A stretch of DNA of 34,903 nucleotides, taken from the NCBI GenBank assembly GCA_023423995.1, contig JAFAEL010000101.1:1-34903 (forward strand). The letters are read 5' to 3'. This stretch comes from Pseudomonadota bacterium. Its GTDB lineage: Bacteria; Pseudomonadota; Alphaproteobacteria; Rhizobiales; Beijerinckiaceae. Shown one piece after another: positions 11,726 to 27,379 of this stretch (within the stretch, counting starts at the first letter, position 1; each line of letters starts with the position of its first letter). The notes under the pieces are model-generated. The model did not search any database and was not told the DNA's origin. It worked only from the letters and a program-made list of their open reading frames with translations. Made by a program: the position numbers and the translations under genes.

Positions 11726-12409
11726 GTGGCTTTGGAGCAGTCGAGCAAGACCGCGCGTGAACTCTTCGAGGAGATCAAGGCGAAGCCGACGAGGCGCCGC
11801 TTCGGTTTCGGCAAGAAGCCGATGCTCATCAATATCGACCTGCAGAAGGCCTACACGGCGGTTGGCGAGTTCGCGACCGCCTACGAGACCGACCCGAAGC
11901 AGGTCGACTATGTGAACGAACTCGCCGAGCTGTTCCGGGCAAAGCGCCTGCCAGTGGCCTGGACCTATGTCGCCTATATGGAGTCGGGCGAAGATTGCGG
12001 CGTCTGGGGAACCCGGACGAACACCCCGGACTCGCTTCAGAATATCAAGGTTGGGTCGGAGAGATCGAAGTTCGATCCGCGCCTCAAGATCGACGAGGTC
12101 AACGACATCGTCGTCAATAAGCGTATGGCATCGGCCTTCTTCGAGACCAACATCCCGTCCCTGATGGTCTGGCATCAGTGCGACAGCGTAATCCTGACGG
12201 GGGGCTCCACTTCGGGCTGCGTTCGCGCCACCTGCGTGGAGGCGCTTTCGCGTGGCTACAAGGTAGCTGTCCCTGAGGAGTGCGTGGCCGACAAGCATGA
12301 GAGCCCGCACTACGCGAACCTCTATGACATGGCGATAAAGTATGCGGATGTCGTCCCCGTTGCGGACGTTGTCGCGTACCTGAAATCCTATCCGGGGACG
12401 AACGCGTGA
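11726..12409 (+). CDS. Isochorismatase-fold amidohydrolase (N-carbamoylsarcosine amidase / maleamate amidase type)
   Basis: A cytosolic cysteine hydrolase of 227 residues that would cleave a terminal amide or carbamoyl group and release ammonia. The expected triad is visible: D38 in LINIDLQ, K132 in VVNKRMASAFF and the nucleophile C165 in GGSTSGCVRAT. The closest functional memory is the N-carbamoylsarcosine amidase/NicF group. The start is uncertain: GTG 11726 is used here, but TTG 11732 is better spaced from GGAG (11721-11724). The next gene overlaps by four bases (GTGA), so the two are translationally coupled. Coupling to a PuuE-type ring-opening hydrolase suggests it acts on the half-amide or carbamoyl product of that enzyme. 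That substrate is an inference. Confidence 0.88.
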   Translation: MALEQSSKTARELFEEIKAKPTRRRFGFGKKPMLINIDLQKAYTAVGEFATAYETDPKQVDYVNELAELFRAKRLPVAWTYVAYMESGEDCGVWGTRTNTPDSLQNIKVGSERSKFDPRLKIDEVNDIVVNKRMASAFFETNIPSLMVWHQCDSVILTGGSTSGCVRATCVEALSRGYKVAVPEECVADKHESPHYANLYDMAIKYADVVPVADVVAYLKSYPGTNA

Positions 12410-13326
12410 GTGACGGCGTGGCCGGCGATCCCGGTCTTTACGATTACCTGCCCTACAAGGGACGGCCAAAGATCACATGGCCGGGCGGCGCCCAGATCGC
12501 GGTCTGGATCGCGCCGAACATCGAGTTCTACGAGTACGAGCCGCCGAAGAACCCGGTGCGGACGCCTTGGGCGCGGCCGCTGCCGGACGTACTCGCCTAT
12601 TCTCATCGGGACTACGGTAACCGCGTCGGTTTCCGGCGGATGCTGGACGCGATGGATGAGGCGGGGTTCCGCGGCTCGGTGTCGCTGAACGTCGCGATGT
12701 GCGACCATCACCCCGAGATCATTGAGGTATGCGCGGACCGAGGCTGGGAGTTCTTCTCCCACGGCGTGTACAACACCCGCTATGCCTACGGCATGAGCGC
12801 CGAGCAGGAGCGAGAGATCATCCGCGACTCGGCCGACACGATTAGGAAGTGGACCGGCCAGAAGCTCGACGGCTGGCTCGCCCCGGCATTGTCGAACAAC
12901 ACGTGGACGATGGACCTCCTCGCCGAAGAGGGCCTCCTCTACACCTGCGACCTGTTCCACGATGATCAGCCGACGCCCATCAAGGTGAAGTCGGGCCGCT
13001 TCGTCAGCGTGCCCTACTCGCTCGAGATGAACGATACGATCGTCTACAACACGAACAGCTACGATCCCCGCCATTACGGGACGATCATCAAGCGCCAGTT
13101 CGACCAGCTCTATAAGGAGGGTGCCACCTCCGGCACGGTCATGTGCATTCCGCTGCACCCCTACCTCGTAGGGCAGCCGCACCGGATCGAGCCCTTCGCC
13201 GAGGCGCTCCGCTACATCGCGGACCACGATAAGGTCTGGAAGGCAACCGGGCGCGAGATCGCGCAGCACTTCCTGGCCAACTCGTACGACGACTTCGCCG
13301 CTGCCGGCGCGGCTCAGGCCCGCTGA
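12406..13326 (+). CDS. PuuE-type (polysaccharide-deacetylase-like) hydrolase, paralogue 1
   Basis: A 306-residue member of the polysaccharide-deacetylase superfamily, of the cytosolic PuuE allantoinase / cyclic imide hydrolase type rather than the secreted chitin/peptidoglycan type. There is no signal peptide. Family marks are RDYGNRVGFRRMLD, SVSLNVAMCDHHPEI, the SHG motif at 118-120 (SHGVYNTRYAYG) and the C-terminal IPLHPYLVGQPHRIEPF. The GTG start at 12406 overlaps the upstream stop. It is followed 13 bases later by a second member of the family, and the two differ at residues after the HG motif. The likely reaction is hydrolytic opening of a cyclic amide, imide or ureide. The real substrate is not determined by the sequence. 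Confidence 0.88.
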   Translation: MSDGVAGDPGLYDYLPYKGRPKITWPGGAQIAVWIAPNIEFYEYEPPKNPVRTPWARPLPDVLAYSHRDYGNRVGFRRMLDAMDEAGFRGSVSLNVAMCDHHPEIIEVCADRGWEFFSHGVYNTRYAYGMSAEQEREIIRDSADTIRKWTGQKLDGWLAPALSNNTWTMDLLAEEGLLYTCDLFHDDQPTPIKVKSGRFVSVPYSLEMNDTIVYNTNSYDPRHYGTIIKRQFDQLYKEGATSGTVMCIPLHPYLVGQPHRIEPFAEALRYIADHDKVWKATGREIAQHFLANSYDDFAAAGAAQAR

Positions 13327-13339
13327 CGGGAGGACGACG

Positions 13340-14275
13340 ATGCCGCTTCCCGACGATCACCTGCAATACCCGCGCCGCGGGCATCACATGGACCACGACC
13401 TTTATAAGTGGTCCGACCTCTTTGACCGGCCGAAGATCGCCTGGCCGAATGGGGCACGCGTCGCGCTCTGGGCGACCCCGCTGGCGCAGTGGTTCCCGAT
13501 CGATTCCACCGGCAAGCCGTTCCGGGCTCCTGGCGCGCTGACGATGCCGTACCCGGATTACCGCCACTACACGAACCGCGACTACGGCAATCGCGTGGGC
13601 ATCTTTCGCCTTCTCGACGTCATGTCGGACCTGGGCATCGCCGGCTCGGTGGCAATGAATGCCGCGGTCGCCGAGCGCTACCCGAATATGGTCGAGGAAG
13701 TCGTCGGCCGCGGCCACGAGATCGTCGCCCACGGCCTCGACATGGACCACCTCCATTACGGTGGCATCCCTGAGGAAGAAGAGGCCGCGCTCGTCCGCCG
13801 CTCCCTCGATATTCTGCGCTCCGTCTCAGGCCAGCCGGTCACTGGCTGGCTCTCGCCGGGACGTTCCCAATCCCATGCGACGCTTGGCCTCTTGGCTCAG
13901 AATGGCATGGCCTACTCTTGCGATTGGGCGAACGACGACATGCCATTCGAGATGGCCACCCCGAATGGCCCGATCTGGGCGATGCCTTTCGCCCAGGAAA
14001 CGGATGACCGCACGGTGATGCTCGACTTCAAGCACACCGAGGACAGCTGGCTGGCGCAGGTGAAGGACCGCTTCGACGTTCTCTACCGCGAGGCAGAGAC
14101 CTATGGCGGCCGCATCGTGTCGGTCCCACTCCACGCGTGGGTTGCCGGCGTGCCCTATCGGATCGGTGCGGTCCGGGAGGCGTTGTCCTATATGATGGGT
14201 CATGACGGCGTCTGGGCAGCAACCGGCGCCGAGATTCTGAAGGCCTTCGAGGCATCCGAGGCAGGCCATGGCTGA
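13340..14275 (+). CDS. PuuE-type (polysaccharide-deacetylase-like) hydrolase, paralogue 2
   Basis: A 311-residue relative of the preceding gene with the same framework: RDYGNRVGIFRLLDVM, GSVAMNAAVAERYPNM, GHEIVAHGLDMDHLHYGG, TGWLSPGRSQS and VPLHAWVAGVPYRI. In the active-site region it has HGLDMDHLHY (H131, H137, H139) where paralogue 1 has HGVYNTRY. So the pair has probably specialised, either as subunits of one enzyme or for successive or different rings. ATG 13340 has GGGAGG about ten bases upstream; an internal ATG at 13388 (MDHDLYKW) is a possible alternative. The gene overlaps the LeuC-like gene by eight bases. Confidence 0.88.
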   Translation: MPLPDDHLQYPRRGHHMDHDLYKWSDLFDRPKIAWPNGARVALWATPLAQWFPIDSTGKPFRAPGALTMPYPDYRHYTNRDYGNRVGIFRLLDVMSDLGIAGSVAMNAAVAERYPNMVEEVVGRGHEIVAHGLDMDHLHYGGIPEEEEAALVRRSLDILRSVSGQPVTGWLSPGRSQSHATLGLLAQNGMAYSCDWANDDMPFEMATPNGPIWAMPFAQETDDRTVMLDFKHTEDSWLAQVKDRFDVLYREAETYGGRIVSVPLHAWVAGVPYRIGAVREALSYMMGHDGVWAATGAEILKAFEASEAGHG

Positions 14276-15683
14276 CCGGGTCGGGCCGCGCACCCTTTAC
14301 GACAAGATCTGGGACCGGCACGTCATCGTTGCACGCGAGGACGGCCCGTCGCTTCTCGCAATCGACCGGCACATAATCCACGAAGGCTCGTTCCATGCCT
14401 TCAACGACCTCCGCCGGCGAGGCATTCGGCCACGTCATCCGGAGCAGATCTTCGGCGTAGCGGATCACTACGTTCCGACCCATGGCCGGCGGCCGGAGGA
14501 CGCGCCGACGGAAGAGATCGCGCGGATGATCCGGGTCTTCGACGAGAACATGGAATGGGGCAGTATCCCCCATTTCTCGCTCGCCGATCGGCGTCAGGGC
14601 ATCGTCCATATCATCGGGCCGGAACAGGGACTTACGCTTCCCGGCCTGACTATCACCTGCAGCGACAGCCATACCTCCACGCAGGGTGCGCTCGGGACCA
14701 TCGCCTTCGGCATCGGTCAGTCCGAGAGCGCGCATGTGATGGCGACCCAGACGATCTGGCAGGCGAAGCCCAAGACCTTCCGTATCACCGTTACCGGGCG
14801 CCGGGCTCCTGGTGTCGAAGCCAAGGACGTCATCCTAACAATCATCCGGACCATCGGGGCGGGAGGCGCGACCGGCTACGCCGTCGAGTATGCCGGGCCC
14901 GTCATCCAGGCCCTCTCCGTCGAGGAGCGGCTCACCGTATGCAACATGTCCATCGAGGCCGGCGCCCGCTCCGGGATGATCGCGCCCGATGACACGACCT
15001 TCTCGTACCTGCAGGGCCGGCCGTATGCGCCGAAGGACGCAGCCTGGGACGCTGCCGTCCGGTTCTGGCGCACCCTCCCCTCCGACGAAGGTGCCCATTT
15101 CGACCGGGAGATCACGATCGACGGAGCCGCCATTGCGCCGACCGTGACCTGGGGCACGAGCCCGGAAGACGCGCTGCCGATTTCCGACCGAGTGCCGGAC
15201 CCCGCCGATATCCCGGACGCGCAGAGGCGCGGTACGGCCGAGCGGGCGCTCGCCTATATGGGCCTGACGCCGGGAACGCCGCTCACGGAGATCCCGATCG
15301 ATCGAGTCTTCATCGGTTCCTGCACCAACAGCCGCATCCAGGATCTGCGCGCGGCGGCTGCGATCCTGAAGGGTCGCAAGTCCGCCGTGCCTGGTATCGT
15401 CGTTCCGGGTTCGGGCTTGGTGAAAGAGGCCGCGGAGGCAGAAGGGCTCGACAGGATCTTCAAGGAGGCCGGGCTCGAATGGCGCGATGCCGGGTGCTCC
15501 ATGTGCTCGGCCATGAACGGCGACATGGTCGGCCCGCAAGAGCGCTGCGCCTCGACTTCCAACCGCAACTTCGTCGGGCGTCAGGGCCCGGGTGCGCGCA
15601 CACACCTCATGAGCCCCGCAATGGCTGCCGCGGCTGCCGTGACGGGCAAGCTGACGGACGTGCGCCGTCTCGTCGGGAACTGA
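14268..15683 (+). CDS. Aconitase-family hydratase, LeuC-like large subunit
   Basis: A 471-residue [4Fe-4S] hydro-lyase subunit. Cluster ligands are visible as C352 (GSCTNSR), C410 and C413 (GCSMC). It follows LeuC closely from RTLYDKIWDRHVI through GPEQGLTLPG and CNMSIEAGARSGMIAPDD. It departs at TCSDSHTSTQGALG, where biosynthetic LeuC normally has STHGA (His to Gln, at residue 139). The context contains no leucine-biosynthesis genes but an importer, amidase and lyase. A catabolic hydratase for maleate, citraconate or 2,3-dimethylmaleate (DmdA-like) therefore fits better than isopropylmalate isomerase. ATG 14268 overlaps the preceding stop by eight bases. Family certainty is high; substrate certainty is low. 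Confidence 0.93.
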   Translation: MADRVGPRTLYDKIWDRHVIVAREDGPSLLAIDRHIIHEGSFHAFNDLRRRGIRPRHPEQIFGVADHYVPTHGRRPEDAPTEEIARMIRVFDENMEWGSIPHFSLADRRQGIVHIIGPEQGLTLPGLTITCSDSHTSTQGALGTIAFGIGQSESAHVMATQTIWQAKPKTFRITVTGRRAPGVEAKDVILTIIRTIGAGGATGYAVEYAGPVIQALSVEERLTVCNMSIEAGARSGMIAPDDTTFSYLQGRPYAPKDAAWDAAVRFWRTLPSDEGAHFDREITIDGAAIAPTVTWGTSPEDALPISDRVPDPADIPDAQRRGTAERALAYMGLTPGTPLTEIPIDRVFIGSCTNSRIQDLRAAAAILKGRKSAVPGIVVPGSGLVKEAAEAEGLDRIFKEAGLEWRDAGCSMCSAMNGDMVGPQERCASTSNRNFVGRQGPGARTHLMSPAMAAAAAVTGKLTDVRRLVGN

Positions 15684-15690
15684 GGCGGAC

Positions 15691-16320
15691 ATGGAACCCT
15701 TCATCCGCCTGACTGGCGTCGCAGCCCCGATCGAGGGCCGCAACATCGATACCGACCAGATCCTGCCGGCGCGCTTTCTCAAGGCCGACAGGGCGCAGGG
15801 CTACGGCCGCTACTTCTTCCACGATGCTCGCTTCGACGGCGAAGGCCGCGAGAAGCCGGACTTCGTCCTGAACCGCGAGCCGTTCCGGCGCGCCACCATC
15901 GTGGTGACGGATGACAATTTCGGCTGCGGCTCTTCTCGCGAAGGCGCCGTCTACGCGCTGCACGATTTCGGCGTGCGGTCGGTGATTGCCCCGTCCTTCG
16001 GGGACATCTTCTACAACAACTGCCTCAAGAACGGCGTCGTGCCGGTTCGGCTCGATCGCCAGGGCGTGACGGCTCTCCTCGACCGCCTCCAAGGCGAGGC
16101 GAACCCTGAGATCACGGTCGATCTAGAGGCACTCGAAGTCACGCTACCCGATGGCGCGCGTCATGCTTTCCCGCTTGATCCGTTCTGGCGCGAATGCCTG
16201 ATGAAGGGCGTCGACGAGATTCAACTTACGCTTGGCTATCTCGACCAGATCGAGGCGTTCGAGCGCGATTACCGGCGCGACATGAGCTGGCTCGGCGCAC
16301 AGCCGCAGTCCACCCATTAG
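15691..16320 (+). CDS. Aconitase-family hydratase, LeuD-like small subunit
   Basis: The 209-residue swivel-domain partner of the LeuC-like gene, seven bases downstream. Typical LeuD marks are the N-terminal GRNIDTDQILPARFLK and the loop DNFGCGSSREGAVYAL that lines the substrate pocket, followed by VIAPSFGDIFYNNCLKNGVVPV. Biosynthetic LeuD usually reads GCGSSREHAPWAL at that loop, so His-Ala-Pro-Trp has become Gly-Ala-Val-Tyr. This supports a changed substrate, consistent with a catabolic hydratase acting on a maleate-type acid. A GAGG sequence precedes ATG 15691. The C-terminal tail after YLDQIEAFERDYRRD is unremarkable. Confidence 0.92.
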   Translation: MEPFIRLTGVAAPIEGRNIDTDQILPARFLKADRAQGYGRYFFHDARFDGEGREKPDFVLNREPFRRATIVVTDDNFGCGSSREGAVYALHDFGVRSVIAPSFGDIFYNNCLKNGVVPVRLDRQGVTALLDRLQGEANPEITVDLEALEVTLPDGARHAFPLDPFWRECLMKGVDEIQLTLGYLDQIEAFERDYRRDMSWLGAQPQSTH

Positions 16321-16378
16321 TCCCAAGACCAAGACGGCGGAACGCCGCTTCCAACCGCTGACACCAGGGGAACAAAAG

Positions 16379-17638
16379 ATGGCAGACGAGAAGAGCGGGT
16401 TCGATGCGACGGCCGGCCGGAGCCGGCGCGACATTCTGAAGGCGGGCGGCTCGACCCTGGCGCTTGCGGCGCTGGGCACGGTCGCGGCCCCGGCAGTACT
16501 TCGCGCGCAGGCACCGGTGATCAAGATCGGCGGCATCGGCCCGCTGACCGGCGCGATCGCCTACAATGGCAATCAGGCGAAGGCCGCGATGCAGTTCGCC
16601 ATTGACGATGCGAATGCCGCCGGCGGCATCAAGAGCATGGGCGGCGCCAAGCTCGAACTCCTGTTCGGCGATGCCGAGTCCCGCCCGGATGTCGGCGCCG
16701 CGCAGGTCGACAAACTCGCAGAGGCAGGTGTCTCGGTCCTCGTCGGCTCCCAGTCGAGCGCGATCAGCCTTGCCACTACGCAAGCTGCGGCGCGCTTCAA
16801 CCTGCCCCAGATCGTGGATGTCGGCACGGCCGATCAGATCGTGCAGCGCGGCCTGCCGAACGTCTTCCGCTTCTCGCCAGGTACGGCGCGCTCGGTGGCT
16901 GAGGGCATCGCGAACCTCAACACGCTGAACGAACAGGCCGGCAAGCCGGTGAAGACGGTCGCCATCGTACACGAGGACGGCCCATTCGGCTCCTCCATGG
17001 CAAAGCTGTTGCAAGAGAAGCTGCCGTCCATCGGCATGAACGTCGTCGAGACGATCAGCCACCCGACGCCGCAGCGCGACTTCACGAACATCGTGCTCCG
17101 CCTGAAGAACGCGAAGCCCGACCTCGTGATGCCCTCGCACTACATCAACGAGTTCATCCTCTTCGCCCGCACGATCCGGCAGCAGCGGTTTGCGCCGAAG
17201 GGCATCTACTCGATCTTCGGCGGCGGGGCCTCCAACATTAAGTTCGTGCGCGAGAACCAGGACGCGGCCCAGTTCGTGATCGACACGAACCACTGGTACG
17301 ATCCGAGAAAGGCCGCCTCGCAGGCGCTCGCCAAGAAGGTCGCGGACGCAAAGCTCGACCTGACCTACGACATCATGGTCGCCTACGGCGCGACGCAGGT
17401 GGCCATCGATGCCATCGAGAAGGCCGGTTCGGCCGACCGGGCCAAGCTGATCGAGACCCTCTCGACCCAGACCTTCGCGGATACCGTGATGCCGTATGGG
17501 CCAATCAAGTTCGTGGGGGGCGACAACACCGGCTCGCATCTCGTCAACCTGCAGGTCCGGGGCGACAAGATCGAGGTCATCTTCCCGAAGGAATACGCCA
17601 CGATCGCGCCGGTATTCCCGATCCCTGAGCGGTCCTGA
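16379..17638 (+). CDS. ABC importer solute-binding protein, branched-chain amino acid type
   Basis: Periplasmic receptor of 419 residues, Peripla_BP_6 (LivK/AmiC-like) fold. It has a Tat signal with SRRDILKAGG (R16-R17), a hydrophobic stretch and a cleavage region near LRAQAP. Mature-domain marks are IKIGGIGPLTGAIAYNG, AQVDKLAEAGVSVLVGSQSS and the second-lobe VKTVAIVHEDGPFGSSMAKLL. ATG 16379 is preceded by AGGGGAAC. In this family ligands include amino acids, amides, urea and aromatic acids. The island context points to a nitrogen-containing cyclic or amide compound, or its acid. A short hairpin separates it from the permease genes, a common way to keep the receptor more abundant. Confidence 0.94.
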   Translation: MADEKSGFDATAGRSRRDILKAGGSTLALAALGTVAAPAVLRAQAPVIKIGGIGPLTGAIAYNGNQAKAAMQFAIDDANAAGGIKSMGGAKLELLFGDAESRPDVGAAQVDKLAEAGVSVLVGSQSSAISLATTQAAARFNLPQIVDVGTADQIVQRGLPNVFRFSPGTARSVAEGIANLNTLNEQAGKPVKTVAIVHEDGPFGSSMAKLLQEKLPSIGMNVVETISHPTPQRDFTNIVLRLKNAKPDLVMPSHYINEFILFARTIRQQRFAPKGIYSIFGGGASNIKFVRENQDAAQFVIDTNHWYDPRKAASQALAKKVADAKLDLTYDIMVAYGATQVAIDAIEKAGSADRAKLIETLSTQTFADTVMPYGPIKFVGGDNTGSHLVNLQVRGDKIEVIFPKEYATIAPVFPIPERS

Positions 17639-17656
17639 CCGGACCTTTTGATTTGT

Positions 17657-17677
17657 GGGCGGGACGATGTCCCGCCC
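17657..17677 (+). terminator. GC-rich hairpin between receptor and permease genes
   Basis: GGGCGGGAC (17657-17665) and GTCCCGCCC (17669-17677) form a perfect 9-bp stem with a 3-base loop, 19 bases after the receptor stop codon. No T-run follows, and the permease genes continue on the same strand. It therefore reads better as a partial terminator or 3'-end stabiliser for the receptor message than as an operon end. Confidence 0.65.
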
Positions 17678-17711
17678 TAGCAACCTCTAGAATTCTGAGG
17701 ATGACCGGCGG

Positions 17712-18581
17712 ATGCTGGGTCTCGTCATACCCGCGATTTTGAGCGGGCTCACCACGGGCGCGGTCTACGCGCTCGTGGCTCTGGGCCTGACCCTGATCTA
17801 CGGCGTTCTTCACATCATCAATTTCGCGCACGGAAGCCTGCTCATGGCAGCGCTCTATGCAGCGCTGTTCATGAACCTGCGGCTGGGCATCGACCCCTAC
17901 GTGGCACTGCCGATCGTGGTCGTCCTGTTCTTCGGGGTGGGCTATGTGCTGCAGCGCTACGTGATCGACACATTCAGCCACGGCCGGGACGCGAACATCC
18001 TCCTCGCCACGCTTGCGCTCTCGATCATCATCGACAACGCCGCGCTGTATTTCTTCACGTCGAACACGCGCACGATCGACGTGCCCTACGCTTTCGAGAT
18101 GATCGAAATCGGGCCGGCCTTCATCCCGCTTCCGAAGGTCGTGGCCTTCGTGGCCGCGCTCGTCTTCGCGGGTCTGTTGTGGCTCCTGATGCGCCACACC
18201 CGGCTGGGTGCCGCGATCCGCGCCGTCGCAATCGAGAAGCGCGGCGCCGAACTCATGGGCATCGACGTCAAGCACACCTACGCGATGTGCTTCGGCATCG
18301 GCACGGCCTGCGTTGCCGCTGCAGCCTGCCTCCTTCTCCCGACCTTCTATGTGACGCCGCAGGTCGGCTATGCGTTCGTGCTGGTCGCCTTCACGACAGT
18401 CGTCCTGGGCGGGATGGGCTCGCTCGGCGGTGCGCTTGTCGCAGGCCTCCTGCTCGGTGTGATCGAAGCTCTCTGCGGACTCTTCCTTGGCGAGACTCTC
18501 GGCCAGATCGGGATCTTCGCCGCCTTCATCCTCACACTGCTTTTCCGGCCCGCGGGCCTCTTTGCTCCGAGAGCTGCCTGA
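17712..18581 (+). CDS. ABC importer permease, LivH type
   Basis: Inner-membrane subunit of 289 residues, BPD_transp_2 family. It shows the LivH N-terminus (SGLTTGAVYALVALGLTLIYG), the HIINFAHGSLLMAALYAA segment, an ATPase-contact loop MRHTRLGAAIRAVAIEKRGAEL and GGMGSLGGALVAGLLLGVIE near the end. About eight membrane helices are expected. ATG 17712 has GAGGATG upstream. Its stop overlaps the LivM-type start by one base (TGATG). Confidence 0.95.
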   Translation: MLGLVIPAILSGLTTGAVYALVALGLTLIYGVLHIINFAHGSLLMAALYAALFMNLRLGIDPYVALPIVVVLFFGVGYVLQRYVIDTFSHGRDANILLATLALSIIIDNAALYFFTSNTRTIDVPYAFEMIEIGPAFIPLPKVVAFVAALVFAGLLWLLMRHTRLGAAIRAVAIEKRGAELMGIDVKHTYAMCFGIGTACVAAAACLLLPTFYVTPQVGYAFVLVAFTTVVLGGMGSLGGALVAGLLLGVIEALCGLFLGETLGQIGIFAAFILTLLFRPAGLFAPRAA

Positions 18582-19573
18582 TGAAACGTCTCGGCCCGGG
18601 CGAAGGTATCGTCGGCATCCTGCTGGTGCTCGCCGCGATTTCTCCTTTCGTCCTTCCGTCGCAGGCCTGGATCGGCTTCGCGGTGAATGCCCTCCTGATC
18701 AGCGTGCTCTCGATCGCCTGGAACGTGACGGGCGGCTTCTGCGGGCAGATGTCGTTCGGCCACGCGGCGCTTTACGGCACCGGCGCCTATGCAGCCGCGC
18801 TCCTGCAACTCCGGCTGGGATTGAACCCCTACCTCGCGGGTGTTTTCGGGATCGCAGCCGGCGCTGCGATGGGCGGCCTGATCGGGACTCTGGCTTTCCG
18901 CTACGGCCTGCGCGGCTCATATTTCGCGCTCGTCACTCTGGCCTTCGCCGAGGTGCTTCGGATTCTGGCGAGTTCGTTCGAGTTCACGGGCGCCGGAAGC
19001 GGCTTGACGCTTCCATTCAAACCTGGCCTGGCGAACTTCCAGTTCGCCGACCGGTACGCCGCCTACGTCTTCGTGCTCATCCTCTGCCTTGCAGCGCTCG
19101 CGGTAGCGGCGGCAGTCAAGGGCTCACGCCTCGGCTCGAACATGATCGCGGTCCGCGAGAACGAAGAAGCCGCGTCCGCGATCGGCATCGACGCTTTCCG
19201 GGTGAAGGTTATCGCGATGATCATCTCGGGCGCGATCGCGGGCGCGGCTGGCGTCGCGTACTTGCAGATCCAGCTCTTCATCGACGCCCCCATCGCCTAC
19301 GGCTCGCTCATCTCAGTCGAGGCGCTCCTCGGACCGATCATCGGCGGGGCCGGCACTCTACTCGGCCCAGTCGTCGGCACCATCGTCCTCCACATCGTCG
19401 GCGAGGTCGTGAAAAACGGTGTCGGCGGCGCCCCAGGCCTCAATCTCGTCTTTTACGGGATCGTCCTCCTGCTCATCCTGCGTTTCCTGCCCAACGGCTT
19501 GATGGGGCTCGCGAGCCATTTGCGCTGGCCAGTTCGTGAGACGGCGATTGCCCGCTCCGCGGAGGCCCGCTGA
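18581..19573 (+). CDS. ABC importer permease, LivM type
   Basis: Second permease of the branched-chain-type importer, 330 residues. Characteristic stretches are AWNVTGGFCGQMSFGHAALYG, RYGLRGSYFALVTLAFAEVLR, the coupling loop SRLGSNMIAVRENEEAASAIG and GGAGTLLGPVVGTIVLH. The start is placed at ATG 18581, overlapping the preceding stop. The frame itself is open further upstream inside livH-type sequence, but that part is a shadow. The stop overlaps the next ATG as TGATG, so translation of the three genes is coupled. Confidence 0.95.
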   Translation: MKRLGPGEGIVGILLVLAAISPFVLPSQAWIGFAVNALLISVLSIAWNVTGGFCGQMSFGHAALYGTGAYAAALLQLRLGLNPYLAGVFGIAAGAAMGGLIGTLAFRYGLRGSYFALVTLAFAEVLRILASSFEFTGAGSGLTLPFKPGLANFQFADRYAAYVFVLILCLAALAVAAAVKGSRLGSNMIAVRENEEAASAIGIDAFRVKVIAMIISGAIAGAAGVAYLQIQLFIDAPIAYGSLISVEALLGPIIGGAGTLLGPVVGTIVLHIVGEVVKNGVGGAPGLNLVFYGIVLLLILRFLPNGLMGLASHLRWPVRETAIARSAEAR

Positions 19574-20328
19574 TGCTTTCCGCACGTGGCATCACCAAGC
19601 GCTTCGGCGGGCTCCTTGCCATCAGCGACGCCTCGCTGGAGGTCGCGGAGGGCAAGATCGTCGCCCTCATCGGCCCGAACGGCGCCGGCAAGACTACCTT
19701 CTTCGCCGCCATGGCGGGCTTCCTGAAGCCTGATGCGGGCGCCGTGACCTTCCGGGGAACGCGGATCGACGGCATGGCGCCGCACCAGATCTGCAAGCTC
19801 GGCCTGACCCGCACCTTCCAGATCGTCCAGCCCTTCGCCGGCCTCACCGTCCGCGAGAACATCGCCTGCGGGGCCCATCTCCATCACCCGAAGAGAAGCG
19901 ACGCACTCGCCCGAGCGGCCGAGATCGCCGCCCAGGTCGGCATGGAACACATGCTCGACCAGCCGGCGCAGGACCTCACGGTAGCGGGCCGGAAGCGGCT
20001 GGAACTCGCCCGCGCGCTTGCGACCGAGCCTAAGCTGCTCCTTCTCGACGAGGTGATGGCCGGACTGATCCCGAGCGAGGTGGCCGAGATCATCCCCACC
20101 ATCCGCAAGATCCGAGATGCCGGCGTGACGATCCTTCTCATCGAGCACGTCATGCAGGCCGTGATGAGCCTCTCCGAAGAGGCCTACGTTCTCAATCAGG
20201 GCCGAATGATCGCCCATGGCACCCCGCAGGAACTCGTCCGCGATCCCCAAGTGATCGAGGCCTATCTCGGGCATGGAGCGGCCGAACGCCTCCACGCGAA
20301 CCAGGCGGGAGCCCAGGCACATGCTTGA
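19573..20328 (+). CDS. ABC importer ATP-binding protein, LivG type
   Basis: ATPase subunit, 251 residues. Walker A is GPNGAGKTT (34-42), Walker B is LLLLDEVMAGL, and the H-loop is in LLIEHVMQAVMSL. The ABC signature is degenerate: LTVAGRKRLELARAL in place of LSxGQ. This form is familiar in rhizobial LivG-like proteins and need not mean loss of activity. The C-terminal DPQVIEAYLGHG is typical of LivG. ATG 19573 overlaps the LivM-type stop, and the gene overlaps the LivF-type start by eight bases. Confidence 0.95.
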   Translation: MLSARGITKRFGGLLAISDASLEVAEGKIVALIGPNGAGKTTFFAAMAGFLKPDAGAVTFRGTRIDGMAPHQICKLGLTRTFQIVQPFAGLTVRENIACGAHLHHPKRSDALARAAEIAAQVGMEHMLDQPAQDLTVAGRKRLELARALATEPKLLLLDEVMAGLIPSEVAEIIPTIRKIRDAGVTILLIEHVMQAVMSLSEEAYVLNQGRMIAHGTPQELVRDPQVIEAYLGHGAAERLHANQAGAQAHA

Positions 20329-21022: not shown

Positions 21023-21061
21023 AACCCGGACCCACAAACGAACCAAGAAAAGGTGCGCCCC

Positions 21062-21952
21062 TTGTCCACTCGCCCAACCACTCGCCTTCGCGAGCTTCTC
21101 GCCCGTCCCGGCGCCGTGATGGCTCCCGGGGTCGTGGACCCGCTCTACGCCCGCCTCGTCGCGAAGCACGGCTTCGATGCCATGTACATGACCGGGGCCG
21201 GCACCTCGGCGACGCGGCTCGGCATGCCGGATATCGGGCTCCTGACCCTGACCGAGATGGTCGATAATGCGGCCCGGATCGCGGCCGTGTCCGACATCCC
21301 GCTGATCGCGGATGCCGACAACGGCTTCGGCGGCCCGTTCAACGTCCGCCGCGCGATCCAGGATTACGAACGCGCCGGCGTTGCGGCTATCCACATGGAG
21401 GACCAGGTGCTGCCGAAGCGCTGTGGCCACCTTGCCGGCAAGCAGCTCGTCTCGGCGGAGGAGATGGTCGCGAAGATCAAGGCCGCGACCGATGCCCGCC
21501 GCGATCAGGATTTCGTCATCATCGCCCGCACTGATGCGATCGCGGTGGACGGCTACGAGGCCGCGCTCGAGCGGGCCGAGATGTACCGGGAGGCGGGCGC
21601 AGACGTGCTCTTCGTCGAGGCGCCGAGCTACGAGCAGCTCGAAGGCATCAACAAGCGCCTCAACTATCCCACGCTCTACAACATGGCCACGAGCGGGAAG
21701 ACGCCGTTCCTGAAGCGCGAGGAGATCGAGGCCTTCGGGTTCAAGATCATCCTCTTCCCGAACTGGCTTCTTCTCTCCGCCATCAAGGCCGCCGACGGCG
21801 CGCTGGAGATCCTCAAGCGCGAGGGGACGATTGCGAGCCTCGCGCCACAGGTGCCTTCCTTCCAGGAGTTCTTCGACCTTGTCGGGATGCAGGAGGTGCG
21901 GGCACTCGAAGCGCGCTACGGCGTGCCGGAGAAGGCTCGGACCGACTACTGA
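21062..21952 (+). CDS. Isocitrate lyase / PEP mutase superfamily lyase (dimethylmalate lyase / methylisocitrate lyase type)
   Basis: A cytosolic Mg-dependent lyase of 296 residues. Visible active-site parts are the metal-binding ADADNGFGG (D84, D86), the EDQ segment and the lyase-type KRCGH loop with catalytic Cys at residue 121, followed by LAGKQLVS. A KRCGH loop marks C-C bond-cleaving members such as methylisocitrate lyase and 2,3-dimethylmalate lyase, as opposed to phosphonate-forming PEP mutase. I chose TTG 21062, which has AAAGGTG six bases upstream; GTG 21053 is the alternative. Downstream of an aconitase-family hydratase in pathway terms, cleavage of a 2-hydroxy-diacid to pyruvate plus a short acid is the natural prediction. 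The precise substrate is not known. Confidence 0.9.
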   Translation: MSTRPTTRLRELLARPGAVMAPGVVDPLYARLVAKHGFDAMYMTGAGTSATRLGMPDIGLLTLTEMVDNAARIAAVSDIPLIADADNGFGGPFNVRRAIQDYERAGVAAIHMEDQVLPKRCGHLAGKQLVSAEEMVAKIKAATDARRDQDFVIIARTDAIAVDGYEAALERAEMYREAGADVLFVEAPSYEQLEGINKRLNYPTLYNMATSGKTPFLKREEIEAFGFKIILFPNWLLLSAIKAADGALEILKREGTIASLAPQVPSFQEFFDLVGMQEVRALEARYGVPEKARTDY

Positions 21953-21964
21953 GCGCAGACGCGA

Positions 21965-23368
21965 ATGGCCATCCGCCCTGCCTCCAAGGCCCCATTCGAG
22001 TACAGCGTCCCGCTCGTCGTGATTGGGGCGGGGGCCTGCGGGCTCACAGCAGCCCTTTCGGCACATGAGCAGGGCATAGGCGTTCTCGTGCTAGAGCGCG
22101 ATTCCCGCCCATCGGGCTCAACGTCGCTTTCGGCCGGTCTCATCCCGGCCGCCGGCACTCGGTTCCAGCGCGAGAAGGGGATCGAGGACAGCCCGGAGCT
22201 TTTCGCGGCCGATCTCGCGGCCAAGGCACATGGCGAGAACGATCCGGCCGTCGTGCGAGCGGTCGCCGAGGCATCCGGTCCGACGATCGACTGGCTGGCT
22301 GAATCGCAGGGGCTCGAGCTCCACCTCGTCGAAGGCTTCACCTACCCGGGCCATTCTCGGCTCCGGATGCATGGACCGAAGTCGCAGACCGGTGCCGATC
22401 TCGAGGCGATGCTCCTCGGTGCCGCTGAGCGTGCCGGGATCGACATCCTGACGAATGCTTCGGTCGAGGATCTCTTCGCGGATGAGACCGGCCGCATCGT
22501 AGCCGTTGCCGCGAAGCGGCCCGACGGTACGGAGGAGATCGTAGGCTGCGAGGCCGTGATCCTCGCCTGCAATGGCTTTGGCGGGAATCCGGATCTCGTG
22601 CGCCGCCACATCCCCGAGATGGCAGAGGCCGAGTATTGCGGTCATACCTCCAACACCGGCGACGCTCTCGCATGGGGTCAAGCGCTAGGGGCTGCGACGG
22701 GCGATCTCGCCTCCTATCAGGGGCACGGCTCGGTGCCGCGGCCGCATTCAGCGCCGCTGACCTGGGCGGTGATCACGCTCGGTGGCTTCCAGGTGAACCG
22801 GGATGGCAGGCGCTTCGCCAACGAGATGCGTGGCTACTCCGAGCACGCGGAGGAGGTTCTCAAGCAGCCCGGCCGCTTCGCCTGGGACATCTACGACGGG
22901 CGCTGCGAGGCCCCTGCCCTCGCCTTCCACGACTACAAGGAATTCAAGCGGCTCGGCGCGATTAAAGAGGCCGGCAGCATCTCCGAACTCGCCGCAGTCA
23001 CCGCCATCCCGGAGGAAGCGCTCGCCAAGACGCTTGCCGAGGTCCAGGGCTACGCGCACGGGGGAGGCACGGACCCGTTCGGGCGGGACTTCACCGCCAA
23101 TCCGCCCCTCTCCCCACCTTACCGTGCCGCGAAGATCACCGGTGCACTCTTTCACACGCAGGGGGGGCTTGCGATCGACGCTGAGGCCCAGGTGCTGCGG
23201 CCCGACGGAACGAGGCTGCCCAACCTTTTTGCAGGTGGCGGCGCCGCGCGCGGTCTCTCCGGCCCCTCATCCTGGGGTTATCTCTCGGGCAACGGGCTTC
23301 TCTCGGCGACAGTGCTCGGCCGCATCGCTGGCCTCGCAGCGGCGCGGCTGGTGAGCCCCGGTGCCTGA
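21965..23368 (+). CDS. FAD-dependent oxidoreductase, fumarate reductase / 3-ketosteroid dehydrogenase-like
   Basis: A 467-residue flavoprotein of the FAD_binding_2 family. The dinucleotide fold is PLVVIGAGACGLTAALSA (GAGACG at 21-26). Other family parts are SGSTSLSAGLIPAAGT, the FAD loop VILACNGFGGNPDLV, GGFQVNRDGRRFANE, FHTQGGLAIDAEAQVL and the C-terminal FAGGGAARGLSG...SGNGLLSATVLG. There is no signal peptide, heme motif or membrane segment, so it acts in the cytosol. Members reduce activated C=C bonds or dehydrogenate adjacent to a carbonyl. In this island it could saturate or desaturate a maleate- or succinate-type intermediate. The start ATG 21965 has only a weak ribosome site; 12 bases separate it from the lyase gene. 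Confidence 0.9.
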   Translation: MAIRPASKAPFEYSVPLVVIGAGACGLTAALSAHEQGIGVLVLERDSRPSGSTSLSAGLIPAAGTRFQREKGIEDSPELFAADLAAKAHGENDPAVVRAVAEASGPTIDWLAESQGLELHLVEGFTYPGHSRLRMHGPKSQTGADLEAMLLGAAERAGIDILTNASVEDLFADETGRIVAVAAKRPDGTEEIVGCEAVILACNGFGGNPDLVRRHIPEMAEAEYCGHTSNTGDALAWGQALGAATGDLASYQGHGSVPRPHSAPLTWAVITLGGFQVNRDGRRFANEMRGYSEHAEEVLKQPGRFAWDIYDGRCEAPALAFHDYKEFKRLGAIKEAGSISELAAVTAIPEEALAKTLAEVQGYAHGGGTDPFGRDFTANPPLSPPYRAAKITGALFHTQGGLAIDAEAQVLRPDGTRLPNLFAGGGAARGLSGPSSWGYLSGNGLLSATVLGRIAGLAAARLVSPGA

Positions 23369-23410
23369 TCCGAGCCCCTCAGCTTACGGCAGGCCGTCCG
23401 TTGGAGAACA

Positions 23411-24184
23411 ATGATGCCTAGAGTTCTGGTGATCGTTCCGTTCCCGATGGACGAGGCCGATCTCGCCAACCGCCGCGAGCAGCTCGGCACGCTCAATCTC
23501 GGGGATGGGATGACTTTCGACTACCGTCCGGTCCGTTTCGCCCCCGCGAACTATACCAGCCACCACGACTTCTCGCTCGCCGACCTCTCGATTCTGGAGG
23601 CCGGGATCGATGCCGAGCGCGAGGGCTATGACGCCGTCTGCATCGACACGATGAGCGACAGCGGCCTGTCGGCCCTGCGCTCGGTCCTGAACATTCCCGT
23701 GATCGGGCCCGGCCGTCACGCCATGCTGGCGGCGCTAATGCTCGGCGAGCGCTTCTCGATCCTCGTCATGTGGGACCGCTGGAAGCCGCTCTACGCCAAG
23801 ACGCTCGGCGAGCTTGGCCTCGAAAAGAAGTGCGCCTCGATCCGCTCCATTGGGGTCGAGCCGAACAACCGTTCGCTCCTCGCCGGTAAGGAGGACGACG
23901 TATTCCCGAAGCTCGAAGCTGCCGCCACGCGCTGCATCGAGGAGGATGGGGCGGACGCCATCATCCTCGGCTCGACGACGATGCACCAGGCCCACGCCTA
24001 TCTGGCGGAGCGCCTGCCGGTGCCGGTGATCAATCCCGGCCCCCTCACCTACCGGCTCGCTGACGCCGCCCTAAAGCTCGGGCTGACCCATAGCCGGAAG
24101 ACCTATCCGACCCCGCTGGCGCCGAAGCGCGACATGATCAAGGCGATCGGCGACGCGGCCGTCGCCGCGGCCCAGGCGAGGTGA
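23411..24184 (+). CDS. Asp/Glu/hydantoin racemase-family protein without catalytic cysteines, paralogue 1
   Basis: A 257-residue protein with the Asp/Glu racemase fold, nearest to hydantoin/allantoin racemases. Two conserved cysteines normally perform the chemistry. The first lies in a CFxDPGL motif; here the matching segment is DTMSDSGL, with Thr80 at the Cys position. The second lies in LGCxGM; here it is ILGSTTM, with Ser188. A nearby Cys77 precedes the first site but is out of register. The fold is otherwise well kept (IPVIGPGRHAM, VPVINPGPLTYRL). It is unlikely to be a standard cysteine racemase. GGAGAA precedes ATG 23411; ATG 23414 is equally possible. A second copy follows after four bases. 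Confidence 0.88.
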   Translation: MMPRVLVIVPFPMDEADLANRREQLGTLNLGDGMTFDYRPVRFAPANYTSHHDFSLADLSILEAGIDAEREGYDAVCIDTMSDSGLSALRSVLNIPVIGPGRHAMLAALMLGERFSILVMWDRWKPLYAKTLGELGLEKKCASIRSIGVEPNNRSLLAGKEDDVFPKLEAAATRCIEEDGADAIILGSTTMHQAHAYLAERLPVPVINPGPLTYRLADAALKLGLTHSRKTYPTPLAPKRDMIKAIGDAAVAAAQAR

Positions 24185-24188
24185 CGCC

Positions 24189-24989
24189 ATGACGACCAGA
24201 CGCATCCTCGTCATCGTCCCATTCGCGCTCGACGCGGAGGGCGTAAAGCGGCGCGAGACCCAGGGCGGCTATGTCCAGCTCGATGCCGGCACCGAGCTGA
24301 CTTATCGGCCCGTGGCCTGCGGGCCGACCTCCTTCATGAGCCCGCACGATTGGACGCTGATGGACATGGCCATCTTCGAGGCCGGAATGAGCGCCGAAGA
24401 GGACGGGTTCGACGCGGTCTGCATCGACACCATGAGCGACAGCGGCATGCAGGCGCTGCGTTCCGTGCTGTCGATCCCGGTCATCTCGCCCGGCCGCGCT
24501 TCCATGCTGTATGCGCTCACGCTCGGCTCGAAGTTCTCGATCCTGGCGCAGTGGGAGCCGGCGATCGTCCGCTATAAGAAGGCAGTCGTCGAGTACGGCC
24601 TTAAAGACCAGTGCGCCTCCATCCGGTCCTTCGACACGCCGCCGGACTTCGCGGCCCTGCTCGACGGCAAGGAGGAGGCGGTGTTCCCCCGCATGCTGGA
24701 CGCTGCCAAACGCTGCATTGAGGAGGACGGCGCCGAGGTGATCTGCCTCGGCTCGACGACCATGCACCAGGCTGCGGCCTACCTAGCCGAGATGCTGCCC
24801 GTGCCCGTGATCAATCCCGGCCCGCTGACCTACAAGCTCGCCGAGACACTCCTGGCTCTCGGCCTGAAGCAAGGCCGGCGGGCCTACCCGTCGCCCGTGG
24901 TACGAAAGGACGATCTGATCCACGCGATGATGAAGGGCGGGGCCGCGCAGGAGAGGGCGAGCCGCCAGGCGGCCGGGCAACCCGGCTGA
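24189..24989 (+). CDS. Asp/Glu/hydantoin racemase-family protein without catalytic cysteines, paralogue 2
   Basis: A 266-residue tandem paralogue of the preceding gene, sharing long stretches such as VCIDTMSDSG, EDGAEVICLGSTTMHQA and VPVINPGPLTYKL. The two catalytic positions carry the same replacements, Thr81 and Ser189, so the change predates the duplication and has been kept in both copies. Conservation of these motifs in both suggests a shared, altered active site, perhaps in a heteromeric enzyme. The C-terminal tail (ERASRQAAGQPG) is extended and polar. ATG 24189 lies four bases after the previous stop with GAGG upstream. It could be an isomerase, a decarboxylase relative or a binding protein; the sequence does not decide. 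Confidence 0.88.
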   Translation: MTTRRILVIVPFALDAEGVKRRETQGGYVQLDAGTELTYRPVACGPTSFMSPHDWTLMDMAIFEAGMSAEEDGFDAVCIDTMSDSGMQALRSVLSIPVISPGRASMLYALTLGSKFSILAQWEPAIVRYKKAVVEYGLKDQCASIRSFDTPPDFAALLDGKEEAVFPRMLDAAKRCIEEDGAEVICLGSTTMHQAAAYLAEMLPVPVINPGPLTYKLAETLLALGLKQGRRAYPSPVVRKDDLIHAMMKGGAAQERASRQAAGQPG

Positions 24990-25006
24990 CGAGGCTGTTG
25001 GAACGG

Positions 25007-25783
25007 ATGTCTGAAACAGGGCCAGCTTTCTCGCTAGAGAACCGGGTGGCCGTGATCACCGGCGCCGCGGGCGACATCGGGCTCGCCATTGCGCTGCGAT
25101 ATGCCAGGGCGGGGGCGCGCCTTGCATTGCTCGACCTCGACCCCGCAGTCCTCGCCGAGCGGATCGAGGCGACGGGGATGACCAGCAGCAACTTCCTCCT
25201 TCTCAGCTGCGATGTCTCGTCGGAAGACGAGGTCAAGACGGCGGTTGCTGCGACCTCGCAACGCTTCGGCCGGGTAGACATCCTGGTCAACAACGCGGCC
25301 GCCCTGACGCCTCTTGCCCCGACGGCGCATGTCGAGATTGCTGCCTGGCGGCGGGTCATCGAGGTGAACCTCACCGGCGCCTTCCTCATGGCCCGGGAAT
25401 GCCTCCGCCCGATGATCGCGGCGCAGCGGGGCGTCATCATCAACGTAGCGTCACAACTCGCCCACGTGACCACGCCCGGGCGCGCCGCCTACAGCGCGTC
25501 GAAGGCGGCTCTCCTATCTCTGACGCGGAGCATCGCGCTCGATCATGCGGGCGACGGCATCCGCGCCGTGAGCCTCTCGCCCGGCGCCATCATGACGAGC
25601 CGCCTCACGCGCCTCATCGGCTCGCCCGACGAGGTCTCGGCGGCACTCGTGGGCGATTATCCTTCCGGTCGCATCGGCACCGCAGACGAGGTCGCCGCGG
25701 CGGCGCTGTTCCTGGCGAGCGACGATGCGGCCTTTGTCACCGGTTCCGATTTCCTGATCGACGGCGGCTACACCGCCCGCTGA
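25007..25783 (+). CDS. Short-chain dehydrogenase/reductase
   Basis: A 258-residue classical SDR. The cofactor motif is TGAAGDIG (18-25). The catalytic residues N121, S149 (NVASQ), Y162 and K166 (YSASK) are all present, with NNAA at 95-98. The acidic residue after the second strand (LLDLD) suggests preference for NAD(H) over NADP(H). The C-terminus ends with SDFLIDGGYTAR, as in FabG-like members. I prefer ATG 25007; TTG 24998 in frame has GAGG upstream and is an alternative. It is the last gene of the island and would oxidise or reduce a hydroxy/keto intermediate. Confidence 0.9.
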   Translation: MSETGPAFSLENRVAVITGAAGDIGLAIALRYARAGARLALLDLDPAVLAERIEATGMTSSNFLLLSCDVSSEDEVKTAVAATSQRFGRVDILVNNAAALTPLAPTAHVEIAAWRRVIEVNLTGAFLMARECLRPMIAAQRGVIINVASQLAHVTTPGRAAYSASKAALLSLTRSIALDHAGDGIRAVSLSPGAIMTSRLTRLIGSPDEVSAALVGDYPSGRIGTADEVAAAALFLASDDAAFVTGSDFLIDGGYTAR

Positions 25784-27309: not shown

Positions 27310-27379
27310 CAGTGGCCCCGAATATCGGGCCAGATCGGCGCTCGGTACCTCTCTCATCAGGCTTGAGATGAGGACGCCG

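What the first reader, a model, noticed from the sequence alone, without database searches (positions are those of the whole stretch)
11726..25783. 14-gene catabolic island that reads as a cyclic-imide (substituted maleimide) degradation pathway with its own importer
Seen: PuuE-type hydrolases (two), an isochorismatase-fold amidase, a LeuC/LeuD-type hydratase, an ICL/PEPM lyase with a KRCGH loop, a fumarate-reductase-type flavoprotein, two racemase-fold proteins, an SDR, a full Liv-type importer and a GntR/UTRA regulator. Known: cyclic imide hydrolases belong to the PuuE-like group, maleamate amidase NicF is isochorismatase-fold, and dimethylmaleate hydratase (DmdAB) and dimethylmalate lyase are aconitase- and ICL-family. 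Inference: ring opening, deamidation, hydration and lyase cleavage would convert a maleimide-type ring to pyruvate plus acetate or propionate. Alkylated maleimides from tetrapyrrole breakdown are one speculative natural source. I know of no described pathway with this exact gene set.
Basis: partly seen in the sequence, partly recalled or inferred. Interest (0 to 1): 0.8.

Follow-up and report, generated by a model that had tools for sequence, protein, structure and literature searches.

The report
Possible pigment-fragment breakdown gene island
A conserved set of bacterial genes looks like an uptake-and-breakdown pathway for small nitrogen ring compounds (cyclic imides), and its neighbours in some other bacteria suggest that the ring may be a fragment of chlorophyll or haem.

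Summary
The island is real. Its 14 core genes (window 11726-24989) keep their order in the seven rhizobial, Microvirga and Paracoccus genomes followed to the end. The SDR at 24998-25783 is not conserved; the GntR gene lies outside the stated span. A three-gene cassette (isochorismatase-fold amidase, PuuE-like PE1, PuuE-like PE2) is the constant part: contiguous in order in 97 of 102 loci holding all three. PE1 keeps a Glu/His/His set; PE2 often loses part of it, so it is probably a partner. Next come an exchangeable hydratase and an ICL-type lyase.

New: glutaryl-CoA dehydrogenase lies beside the cassette in 11 of 112 distinct loci, in five arrangements and 6 of 61 PE1 clusters (about 0.3 expected), in six of the 11 with a glutarate-type CoA-transferase. 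Hydratase plus lyase would yield glutarate from a carboxyethyl-substituted ring; the natural one I know is hematinic acid, from haem and chlorophyll. I therefore favour hematinic or dihydrohematinic imide giving ammonia, pyruvate and glutarate. No activity was tested; the window has no such dehydrogenase, and other branches suggest other substrates.

The parts
11726..12409 (+). ISO: isochorismatase-fold cysteine amidase, proposed half-amide (maleamate-type) amidase
   Evidence: PF00857 E 9.1e-28; closest solved relatives N-carbamoylsarcosine amidohydrolase 26st and isochorismatase-family 4l07, each 110 bits; putative isochorismatase 3ot4/3uao 66 bits; D38, K132, C165 in at least 97% of 109 sequences
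12406..13326 (+). PE1: PuuE-like cyclic amide/imide hydrolase, proposed catalytic ring opener
   Evidence: PuuE model 132.9 bits, below cut-off 424.6; profile best in PDB 1z7a and 3cl6; E40, H119, H251 in 108 of 108
13340..14275 (+). PE2: second PuuE-like protein, proposed partner subunit with partly degenerate active site
   Evidence: PuuE model 117.6 bits; position of E40 is Gln in 40 of 106 (the window one of them), position of H119 is Asn in 38 of 106 (His in the window)
14268..15683 (+). LeuC-type hydratase large subunit
   Evidence: TIGR00170 660.5 bits; paralogue of another LeuC in 8 of 8 genomes with the window-type LeuC
15691..16320 (+). LeuD-type hydratase small subunit
   Evidence: TIGR00171 217.4 bits
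16379..17638 (+). Substrate-binding protein of the Liv-type importer
   Evidence: PF13458 E 1.5e-52
17712..18581 (+). LivH-type permease
   Evidence: PF02653
18581..19573 (+). LivM-type permease (likely start ATG at 18581)
   Evidence: PF02653 in the longer ORF 18179-19573; start read
19573..20328 (+). LivG-type ATPase
   Evidence: PF00005, PF12399
20273..21022 (+). LivF-type ATPase (true start probably near 20321)
   Evidence: PF00005; LivF model 227 bits over residues 16-248
21053..21952 (+). LYA: ICL/PEP-mutase superfamily lyase with PKRCGH loop
   Evidence: closest solved relative 2,3-dimethylmalate lyase 3fa3 at 217.5 bits, petal death protein at 215.1; PrpB model 294.2, below cut-off 354.4
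21965..23368 (+). FRD: flavoprotein of the fumarate reductase/flavocytochrome c group, proposed C-C dehydrogenase or reductase
   Evidence: TIGR01813 260.9 bits, below cut-off 285.45; TcuA model 167.5 bits, cut-off 369
23411..24184 (+). RAC1: Asp/Glu-racemase-fold protein
24189..24989 (+). RAC2: paralogue of RAC1 (54% identical)
   Evidence: PF01177; alignment A2
24998..25783 (+). SDR: next to the block, not conserved with it
   Evidence: 0 of 117 loci at 50% identity or more
25990..26775 (-). GntR/UTRA regulator, convergent
   Evidence: PF07702, PF00392; a GntR gene (34-36% identical) faces the block from its far end in 5 of 7 extended loci, in 3 of them after an extra MmgE/PrpD-like gene

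Best explanation
The island imports and breaks down a five-membered cyclic imide, most likely one carrying a carboxyethyl side chain: hematinic acid imide (3-methyl-4-carboxyethyl-maleimide) or its dihydro form, fragments of haem and chlorophyll. Proposed steps: Liv-type import; ring opening by PE1 (with PE2 as partner) to the half-amide; deamidation by ISO to the dicarboxylate (here a tricarboxylate, a methyl-homoaconitate); hydration by LeuCD; cleavage by LYA to pyruvate plus glutarate. Glutarate would then be activated by a CoA-transferase and oxidised by glutaryl-CoA dehydrogenase (next door in several relatives; not in this window, presumably elsewhere in its genome, which is not held). 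FRD would oxidise the saturated succinate form (from the reduced ring of chlorophyll) to the maleate form, and RAC1/RAC2 would epimerise it. Shown: gene content, order, conservation, residue patterns and the glutaryl-CoA dehydrogenase association. Inferred: every reaction and the substrate; the FRD and RAC roles are the weakest.
For: Cassette contiguous in 97 of 102 loci. The hydratase is exchanged while the lyase stays: window LeuC type in 33 loci (27 with lyase), homoaconitase-family type in 14 (11 with lyase); the L002 member of the latter passes TIGR01343. Glutaryl-CoA dehydrogenase in 11 of 112 distinct loci against about 0.5 expected; 6 of 61 PE1 clusters at 90%, Poisson P about 7e-7. 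Identity of the L002 dehydrogenase: 735 bits to 3gnc, 198 to butyryl-CoA dehydrogenase; the other ten are 64-93% identical to it. The CoA-transferases beside it in L002, L022, L064 and L161 are nearest to succinate--glutarate CoA-transferase (458-555 bits, next model 281-320). Paracoccus L189 carries the window's own island type with both genes upstream. In L136-L138 the dehydrogenase ORF ends 34-48 bases before ISO on the same strand. Hematinic acid was found in leaves, and earlier work cited there found it and maleimides in senescent leaves and lake sediments (PMC7318184, section 8); E. coli ChuS releases it from haem (PMC11442138, passage). Opening of a cyclic imide by an enzyme related to the PuuE group, then amide hydrolysis, is known in fungal nicotinate breakdown (PMC9304392, passages).
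Against: No enzyme was assayed. The window encodes neither glutaryl-CoA dehydrogenase nor the CoA-transferase, and 101 of 112 loci have no such dehydrogenase in the stretch read. Five of the 11 loci with it show no lyase (L064, L067, L136-L138). Of three further genomes, one had it, one (G1139) had ETF but no dehydrogenase in about 7 kb beyond, one was a short contig. The CoA-transferases stay below the strict cut-off of 750 bits. LYA of the window type differs in the presumed pocket segment from the other type and from PrpB. RAC1/RAC2 lack both 3qvj cysteines. Other branches carry a true PrpB (L074), HMG-CoA lyase with a CoA-transferase (sphingomonads), or glutamine synthetase with aminotransferase (L144), so the cassette probably serves several substrates. 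PE1 is far below the PuuE cut-off and nearer PuuE than 3qbu, the structure to which HxnM was compared. PMC7318184 found hematinic acid but no maleimides in its own leaf samples.
Confidence: 0.38

Rival explanations
1. Same route, but for dialkyl maleimides (dimethyl- or methylethyl-maleimide) or simple maleimide/citraconimide, giving pyruvate plus acetate, propionate or butyrate.
For: LYA is nearest to 2,3-dimethylmalate lyase; the window-type LYA has no Arg in the segment where PrpB and the other LYA type have one (that this is the pocket is recalled); a true PrpB (518 bits, cut-off 353) lies near the cassette in Stenotrophomonas L074, which hints at propionate.
Against: Does not explain glutaryl-CoA dehydrogenase and the glutarate-type CoA-transferase beside the cassette in five arrangements.
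Confidence: 0.25
2. The cassette acts on six-ring glutarimide-type imides, giving glutarate directly by ring opening and deamidation; hydratase and lyase belong to separate steps.
For: Explains glutaryl-CoA dehydrogenase beside the cassette where no lyase was seen (L064, L067, L136-L138). A six-ring imide is opened by HxnM (PMC9304392).
Against: Leaves hydratase plus lyase unexplained, though 39 of 49 loci with the lyase carry both; natural glutarimides are scarce (recalled).
Confidence: 0.12
3. Ureide or hydantoin pathway: PE1/PE2 open a hydantoin-like ring, ISO removes a carbamoyl group, RAC1/RAC2 are hydantoin racemases.
For: PE1 nearest to PuuE allantoinase, ISO nearest to N-carbamoylsarcosine amidohydrolase, RAC1 fold nearest to allantoin racemase.
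Against: Does not use the hydratase and lyase; both 3qvj cysteines are absent (but 5lfd itself lines up with Gly at the first); PuuE cut-off missed by far.
Confidence: 0.15
4. Glutaryl-CoA dehydrogenase neighbours are coincidental clustering of catabolic genes.
For: Other acyl-CoA dehydrogenases also occur near the cassette: 18 genes in 12 loci. The control set is small and not clean: 0 of 20 with the dehydrogenase where only about 0.1 is expected, and one control locus (L167) itself carries RAC1-, MmgE/PrpD- and LivG-like genes.
Against: About one glutaryl-CoA dehydrogenase per genome makes 11 in 2.0 Mb about twenty times the expectation; five different arrangements, two of them co-directional and directly upstream of ISO.
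Confidence: 0.1

Closest known systems
Dimethylmaleate hydratase (DmdAB) and 2,3-dimethylmalate lyase of the anaerobic nicotinate pathway (recalled)
   Same: hydration of a disubstituted maleate by an aconitase-family heterodimer, then cleavage by an ICL/PEP-mutase lyase; the window lyase is nearest to a solved 2,3-dimethylmalate lyase
   Different: no imide ring there; the cassette genes are not part of it (recalled); glutarate-handling genes beside some relatives here
Methylcitrate cycle, 2-methylisocitrate lyase PrpB
   Same: hematinic acid after hydration would be the one-carbon-longer homologue of 2-methylisocitrate; same lyase superfamily and KRCGH loop
   Different: PrpB model cut-off not met by the window lyase (294 against 354)
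Bacterial cyclic imide metabolism (imidase plus half-amidase; recalled) and fungal HxnM/HxnN (PMC9304392, passages)
   Same: imide ring opening by an enzyme related to the PuuE group, then amide hydrolysis
   Different: isochorismatase-fold amidase here; two PuuE-like proteins; downstream hydratase and lyase
Maleamate route of aerobic nicotinate breakdown (NicF; recalled)
   Same: isochorismatase-fold amidase making a maleate
   Different: ISO is closer to N-carbamoylsarcosine amidohydrolase (110 bits) than to 3ot4/3uao (66 bits), which I recall as the NicF structure
Glutarate catabolism: glutaryl-CoA dehydrogenase plus CaiB/BaiF glutarate CoA-transferase
   Same: both genes found beside the cassette in several lineages
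   Different: a standard module, here joined to an imide-type cassette

Membership tests
PuuE allantoinase | score above TIGR03212 cut-off 424.6 | tested here: not met
   PE1 132.9, PE2 117.6 bits
PuuE-like cyclic amidohydrolases | sequence relationship and conserved Glu/His/His | tested here: met
   profile match to 1z7a and 3cl6; PE1 E40, H119, H251 in 108 of 108; PE2 only partly; that these are catalytic is inferred
Cyclic imide hydrolase (P. putida CIH/HxnM) | membership of that branch | tested here: inconclusive
   reference sequence not held; 3qbu, named as HxnM's nearest structure, scores 66 bits against 132 for 1z7a
Isochorismatase superfamily cysteine amidases | Asp-Lys-Cys triad (recalled) | tested here: met
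   D38, K132, C165 in at least 97% of 109
Isopropylmalate dehydratase LeuC | score above TIGR00170 cut-off 560 | tested here: met
   660.5 bits, but another LeuC exists in 8 of 8 genomes with the window type, so leucine function is not implied
LeuD/DmdB small subunit subfamily | score above TIGR02087 cut-off 109 | tested here: not met
   window LeuD 80.8 bits; L002 LeuD meets it with 143.5
Methylisocitrate lyase PrpB | score above TIGR02317 cut-off 354 | tested here: not met
   window 294.2 bits; L141 294.0, L144 252.1; L074 411.2 meets it
2,3-dimethylmalate lyase | nearest to a solved member, and activity | tested here: inconclusive
   217.5 bits to 3fa3 but 215.1 to petal death protein; activity not testable here
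Hydantoin/allantoin racemase | catalytic cysteine pair as in 3qvj | tested here: not met
   positions are Thr80 and Ser188 in 122 of 122; 5lfd has only the second cysteine in the alignment; fold agrees
Tricarballylate dehydrogenase TcuA | score above NF006130 cut-off 369 | tested here: not met
   167.5 bits
Liv-type ABC importer | binding protein, two permeases, two ATPases in one block | tested here: met

The most novel reading that the evidence does not exclude
This is a bacterial pathway that mineralises the monopyrrole imides left by oxidative breakdown of chlorophyll and haem (hematinic acid, dihydrohematinic acid and perhaps methylethylmaleimide) to ammonia, pyruvate and glutarate, with epimerase-like and flavin enzymes added to use the saturated ring form peculiar to chlorophyll.
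Probability: 0.3. Interest if true: 0.88.

Novelty: new variant of a known kind. Interest (0 to 1): 0.68.

Why it matters
Chlorophyll is made and degraded on a scale of about 10^12 kg a year (PMC7318184, passage). Hematinic acid is a known oxidation product in leaves and of haem, but searches of an open-access library listed no paper that I recognised from title or abstract as describing a bacterial pathway that consumes it. If the reading holds, the fate of the pyrrole carbon and nitrogen becomes testable with a named gene set, and genes named 'polysaccharide deacetylase' and 'allantoin racemase' in databases gain a role.

Tried and rejected

Rows dropped before counts: five duplicate loci (L016, L050, L133, L162, L163) in going from 117 to 112; the 61 PE1 clusters were made on all 117. 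L086-L131 (short stretches) were never counted as loci. L184-L195 came later and are outside the 112. L161 is the extension of L050, so 28 of the 29 second-sample loci are new and 4 of them have the dehydrogenase (three of these are one PE1 cluster). The first 80 genome loci were the best-scoring of at least 582, so the sample leans to close relatives. The 49 lyase loci include two Stenotrophomonas loci (L074, L076) whose lyase has the PrpB pattern (L074 confirmed). Hydratase-type counts overlap where a locus has two.
Full report
What is there. Window 11726-25783 encodes 15 plus-strand genes, close-packed in one direction, and a convergent GntR/UTRA gene at 25990-26775. No whole genome is held for the window, so it was judged through relatives.

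Relatives. PE1 (12406-13326) was the anchor, because LeuC and ABC genes are too common. A scan of genome contigs with an alignment of 27 PE1 sequences returned the best 80 of at least 582 related stretches. Five plasmid loci were added from 554 plasmid records matching PE2. Evenly drawn genomes gave PE1 matches at E up to 1e-80 (more distant paralogues included) in 14 of 300 of one order and 33 of 385 of one class; at E up to 1e-100 in 3 of 274 of another class; at E up to 1e-110 in 3 of 5 of a small order and 3 of 299 of one family. The gene is uncommon and patchily spread.

The constant part. In 112 distinct loci (117 less five duplicates) ISO is found in 104, PE2 in 107 and all three cassette genes in 102. 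In 97 of these 102 they are contiguous in the order ISO-PE1-PE2 on one strand; 37 of the 112 loci are shorter than 15 kb, many of them cut by contig ends. The 20 control loci around more distant PE1 paralogues (44-50% identical) have no ISO or PE2 at the same thresholds. The full order ISO-PE1-PE2-LeuC-LeuD-SBP-LivH-LivM-LivG-LivF-LYA-FRD-RAC1-RAC2 is seen whole in L001 and L187, and in the other six extended loci when searches are read together. Genes missing from the listing appear in place for the same genomes: some lie outside the stretch (ISO in L184, L185, L186 and L188, PE1 also in L186), and others were lost to the ORF picking (LeuD in L184 and L190, LivH in L188-L190, FRD in L189). 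After RAC2 there is an MmgE/PrpD-like gene (27-32%) in L188-L190 and a facing GntR gene in five of seven, not the window's SDR.

PE1 and PE2. Both belong with PuuE allantoinase by profile but far below its cut-off. PE1 keeps a Glu (40) and two His (119, 251) in 108 of 108 sequences; these line up with residues of PuuE. In PE2 the Glu is Gln in 40 of 106 (the window among them), the first His is Asn in 38 of 106, and the second His is kept in 90 of 106; the window's PE2 keeps both His. I infer that PE1 is the catalyst and PE2 a partner subunit. That these residues are catalytic is inferred, not tested.

Hydratase and lyase. The hydratase is exchangeable: window-type LeuC in 33 loci, a homoaconitase-family LeuC in 14, another LeuC in 3 and an MmgE/PrpD protein in 17, with some overlap (families). 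The lyase is in 49 loci, 39 of which also have a hydratase; two of the 49 (L074, L076) have a PrpB-type lyase. FRD is in 32 and a RAC in 21 of 112, undercounted because many stretches end before them. Eight of eight genomes with the window-type LeuC have one or two more LeuC genes, 55-59% identical, elsewhere. The lyase splits into types: one with YNMATSGKTP and YPNWLLLSA (window, rhizobia, Paracoccus) and one with ANMVEGGxTP and FPGGxxRA. Its nearest solved relatives are 2,3-dimethylmalate lyase and petal death protein.

Glutarate. The B. plantarii plasmid locus has an unspecified acyl-CoA dehydrogenase, ETF and CoA-transferase beside the module. Seeing this, I noted that hematinic acid would give pyruvate plus glutarate and set as a test whether the dehydrogenase is glutaryl-CoA dehydrogenase, ahead of reading its sequence in the same batch. 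It is: 735 bits to 3gnc against 198 to butyryl-CoA dehydrogenase. The gene (at least 55% identical over 70%) is in 11 of 117 loci and 0 of 20 controls. Places: ending 34-48 bases before ISO in L136-L138; GCDH, CoA-transferase, ISO on one strand in L064 and L067; divergent in L022, L027, L083 and L141; downstream of the lyase in L002 and L161. Six of the 11 have the CoA-transferase too. Of 19 chromosomal genomes searched, 16 hold one copy at 50% identity or more, two hold two and one none. Taking 1.2 copies per 4.3 Mb, 0.56 would be expected in 2.00 Mb; at the level of 61 PE1 clusters, 6 against 0.29 (P about 7e-7, treating clusters as independent, an approximation; at 19 clusters, 4 against 0.09, P about 3e-6). 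Other acyl-CoA dehydrogenases number 18 in 12 loci; the first-look candidates per genome were 12-44, so such genes are far commoner. Of three later loci, G1260 had the dehydrogenase and CoA-transferase, G1139 had ETF but no dehydrogenase in about 7 kb beyond, and G977 was a 4.9 kb contig. The CoA-transferases of L002, L022, L064 and L161 are nearest to succinate--glutarate CoA-transferase, below its strict cut-off (458-555 against 750). In the PDB the L002 one matches a CaiB/BaiF protein (406 bits) and then 9br7, succinate--hydroxymethylglutarate CoA-transferase (363 bits), which I recall as SUGCT. The window itself has neither gene.

Why hematinic acid. An ICL-type lyase acting on a hydrated maleate yields an alpha-keto acid plus R-CH2-COOH. 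For glutarate R must be CH2CH2COOH. A maleimide with methyl and carboxyethyl groups is hematinic acid. Mass balance (my arithmetic): C8H9NO4 + 3 H2O gives NH3 + pyruvate C3H4O3 + glutarate C5H8O4. Hydrated hematinic acid is the one-carbon homologue of 2-methylisocitrate, and the triacid is a methyl-homoaconitate, which suits the homoaconitase-family hydratase of the second type (inference). Hydration the other way round would give 2-oxoglutarate plus propionate, which needs no glutaryl-CoA dehydrogenase. PMC7318184 (passages and section 8) found hematinic acid in leaves, though not maleimides, and cites both from senescent leaves and lake sediments. ChuS of E. coli releases hematinic acid from haem (PMC11442138, passage; title in the reference list of PMC6018153). 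PMC8669743 (passages) mentions maleimides as degradation products of bacteriochlorophylls. PMC9304392 (passages) describes a cyclic imide hydrolase followed by an amide hydrolase in a fungus and links it to the PuuE group.

Against. Most loci, the window included, have no glutarate gene nearby. Several Burkholderiales MAGs carry extra genes: a second isochorismatase, a PhyH-like oxygenase and a SnoaL-like protein. Two sphingomonads and L008 carry HMG-CoA lyase with a CoA-transferase. L144 has glutamine synthetase and aminotransferase genes next to a third lyase type. L074 has a true PrpB. The cassette is therefore probably a general tool for imide-like rings joined to different downstream routes, and the window's exact substrate could be another alkyl imide.

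Noticed in passing
L144, L145, L148 (near ISO-PE1-PE2): A different branch: a third lyase type beside other acyl-CoA dehydrogenase genes, and in L144 also glutamine synthetase and an aminotransferase, suggesting another substrate for the same cassette.
   Followed up: partly
L033, L038, L041, L046, L051, L060, L062, L067, L070: Burkholderiales MAG clusters (mostly Comamonadaceae by title) with a second isochorismatase, a second PE1-like gene, PhyH-like and SnoaL-like genes, and mostly an MmgE/PrpD gene and a gene without Pfam match.
   Followed up: partly
L074, L076: In Stenotrophomonas a PrpB-type 2-methylisocitrate lyase lies near the cassette (L074 meets the PrpB cut-off).
   Followed up: partly
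L167: A locus taken as control (PE1 paralogue) also carries RAC1-, MmgE/PrpD- and LivG-like genes, so paralogues of the cassette may form related clusters.
   Followed up: no
L006: Contig filed as a Thermomicrobiales MAG encodes PE1 90% identical to the window; possibly a misbinned alphaproteobacterial contig.
   Followed up: no
L002: The module lies on a plasmid of Burkholderia plantarii typed as conjugative, with transposase genes on both sides, so it may move between hosts.
   Followed up: no
window 31746-33430: A Lactamase_B_2 gene and a TENA/THI-4/PqqC-family gene in tandem look like pqqB-pqqC (name recalled).
   Followed up: no
window 27281-28072: A FixK/FNR-type regulator (FixK model 226 bits, cut-off 300) close to the island's right end.
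   Followed up: no
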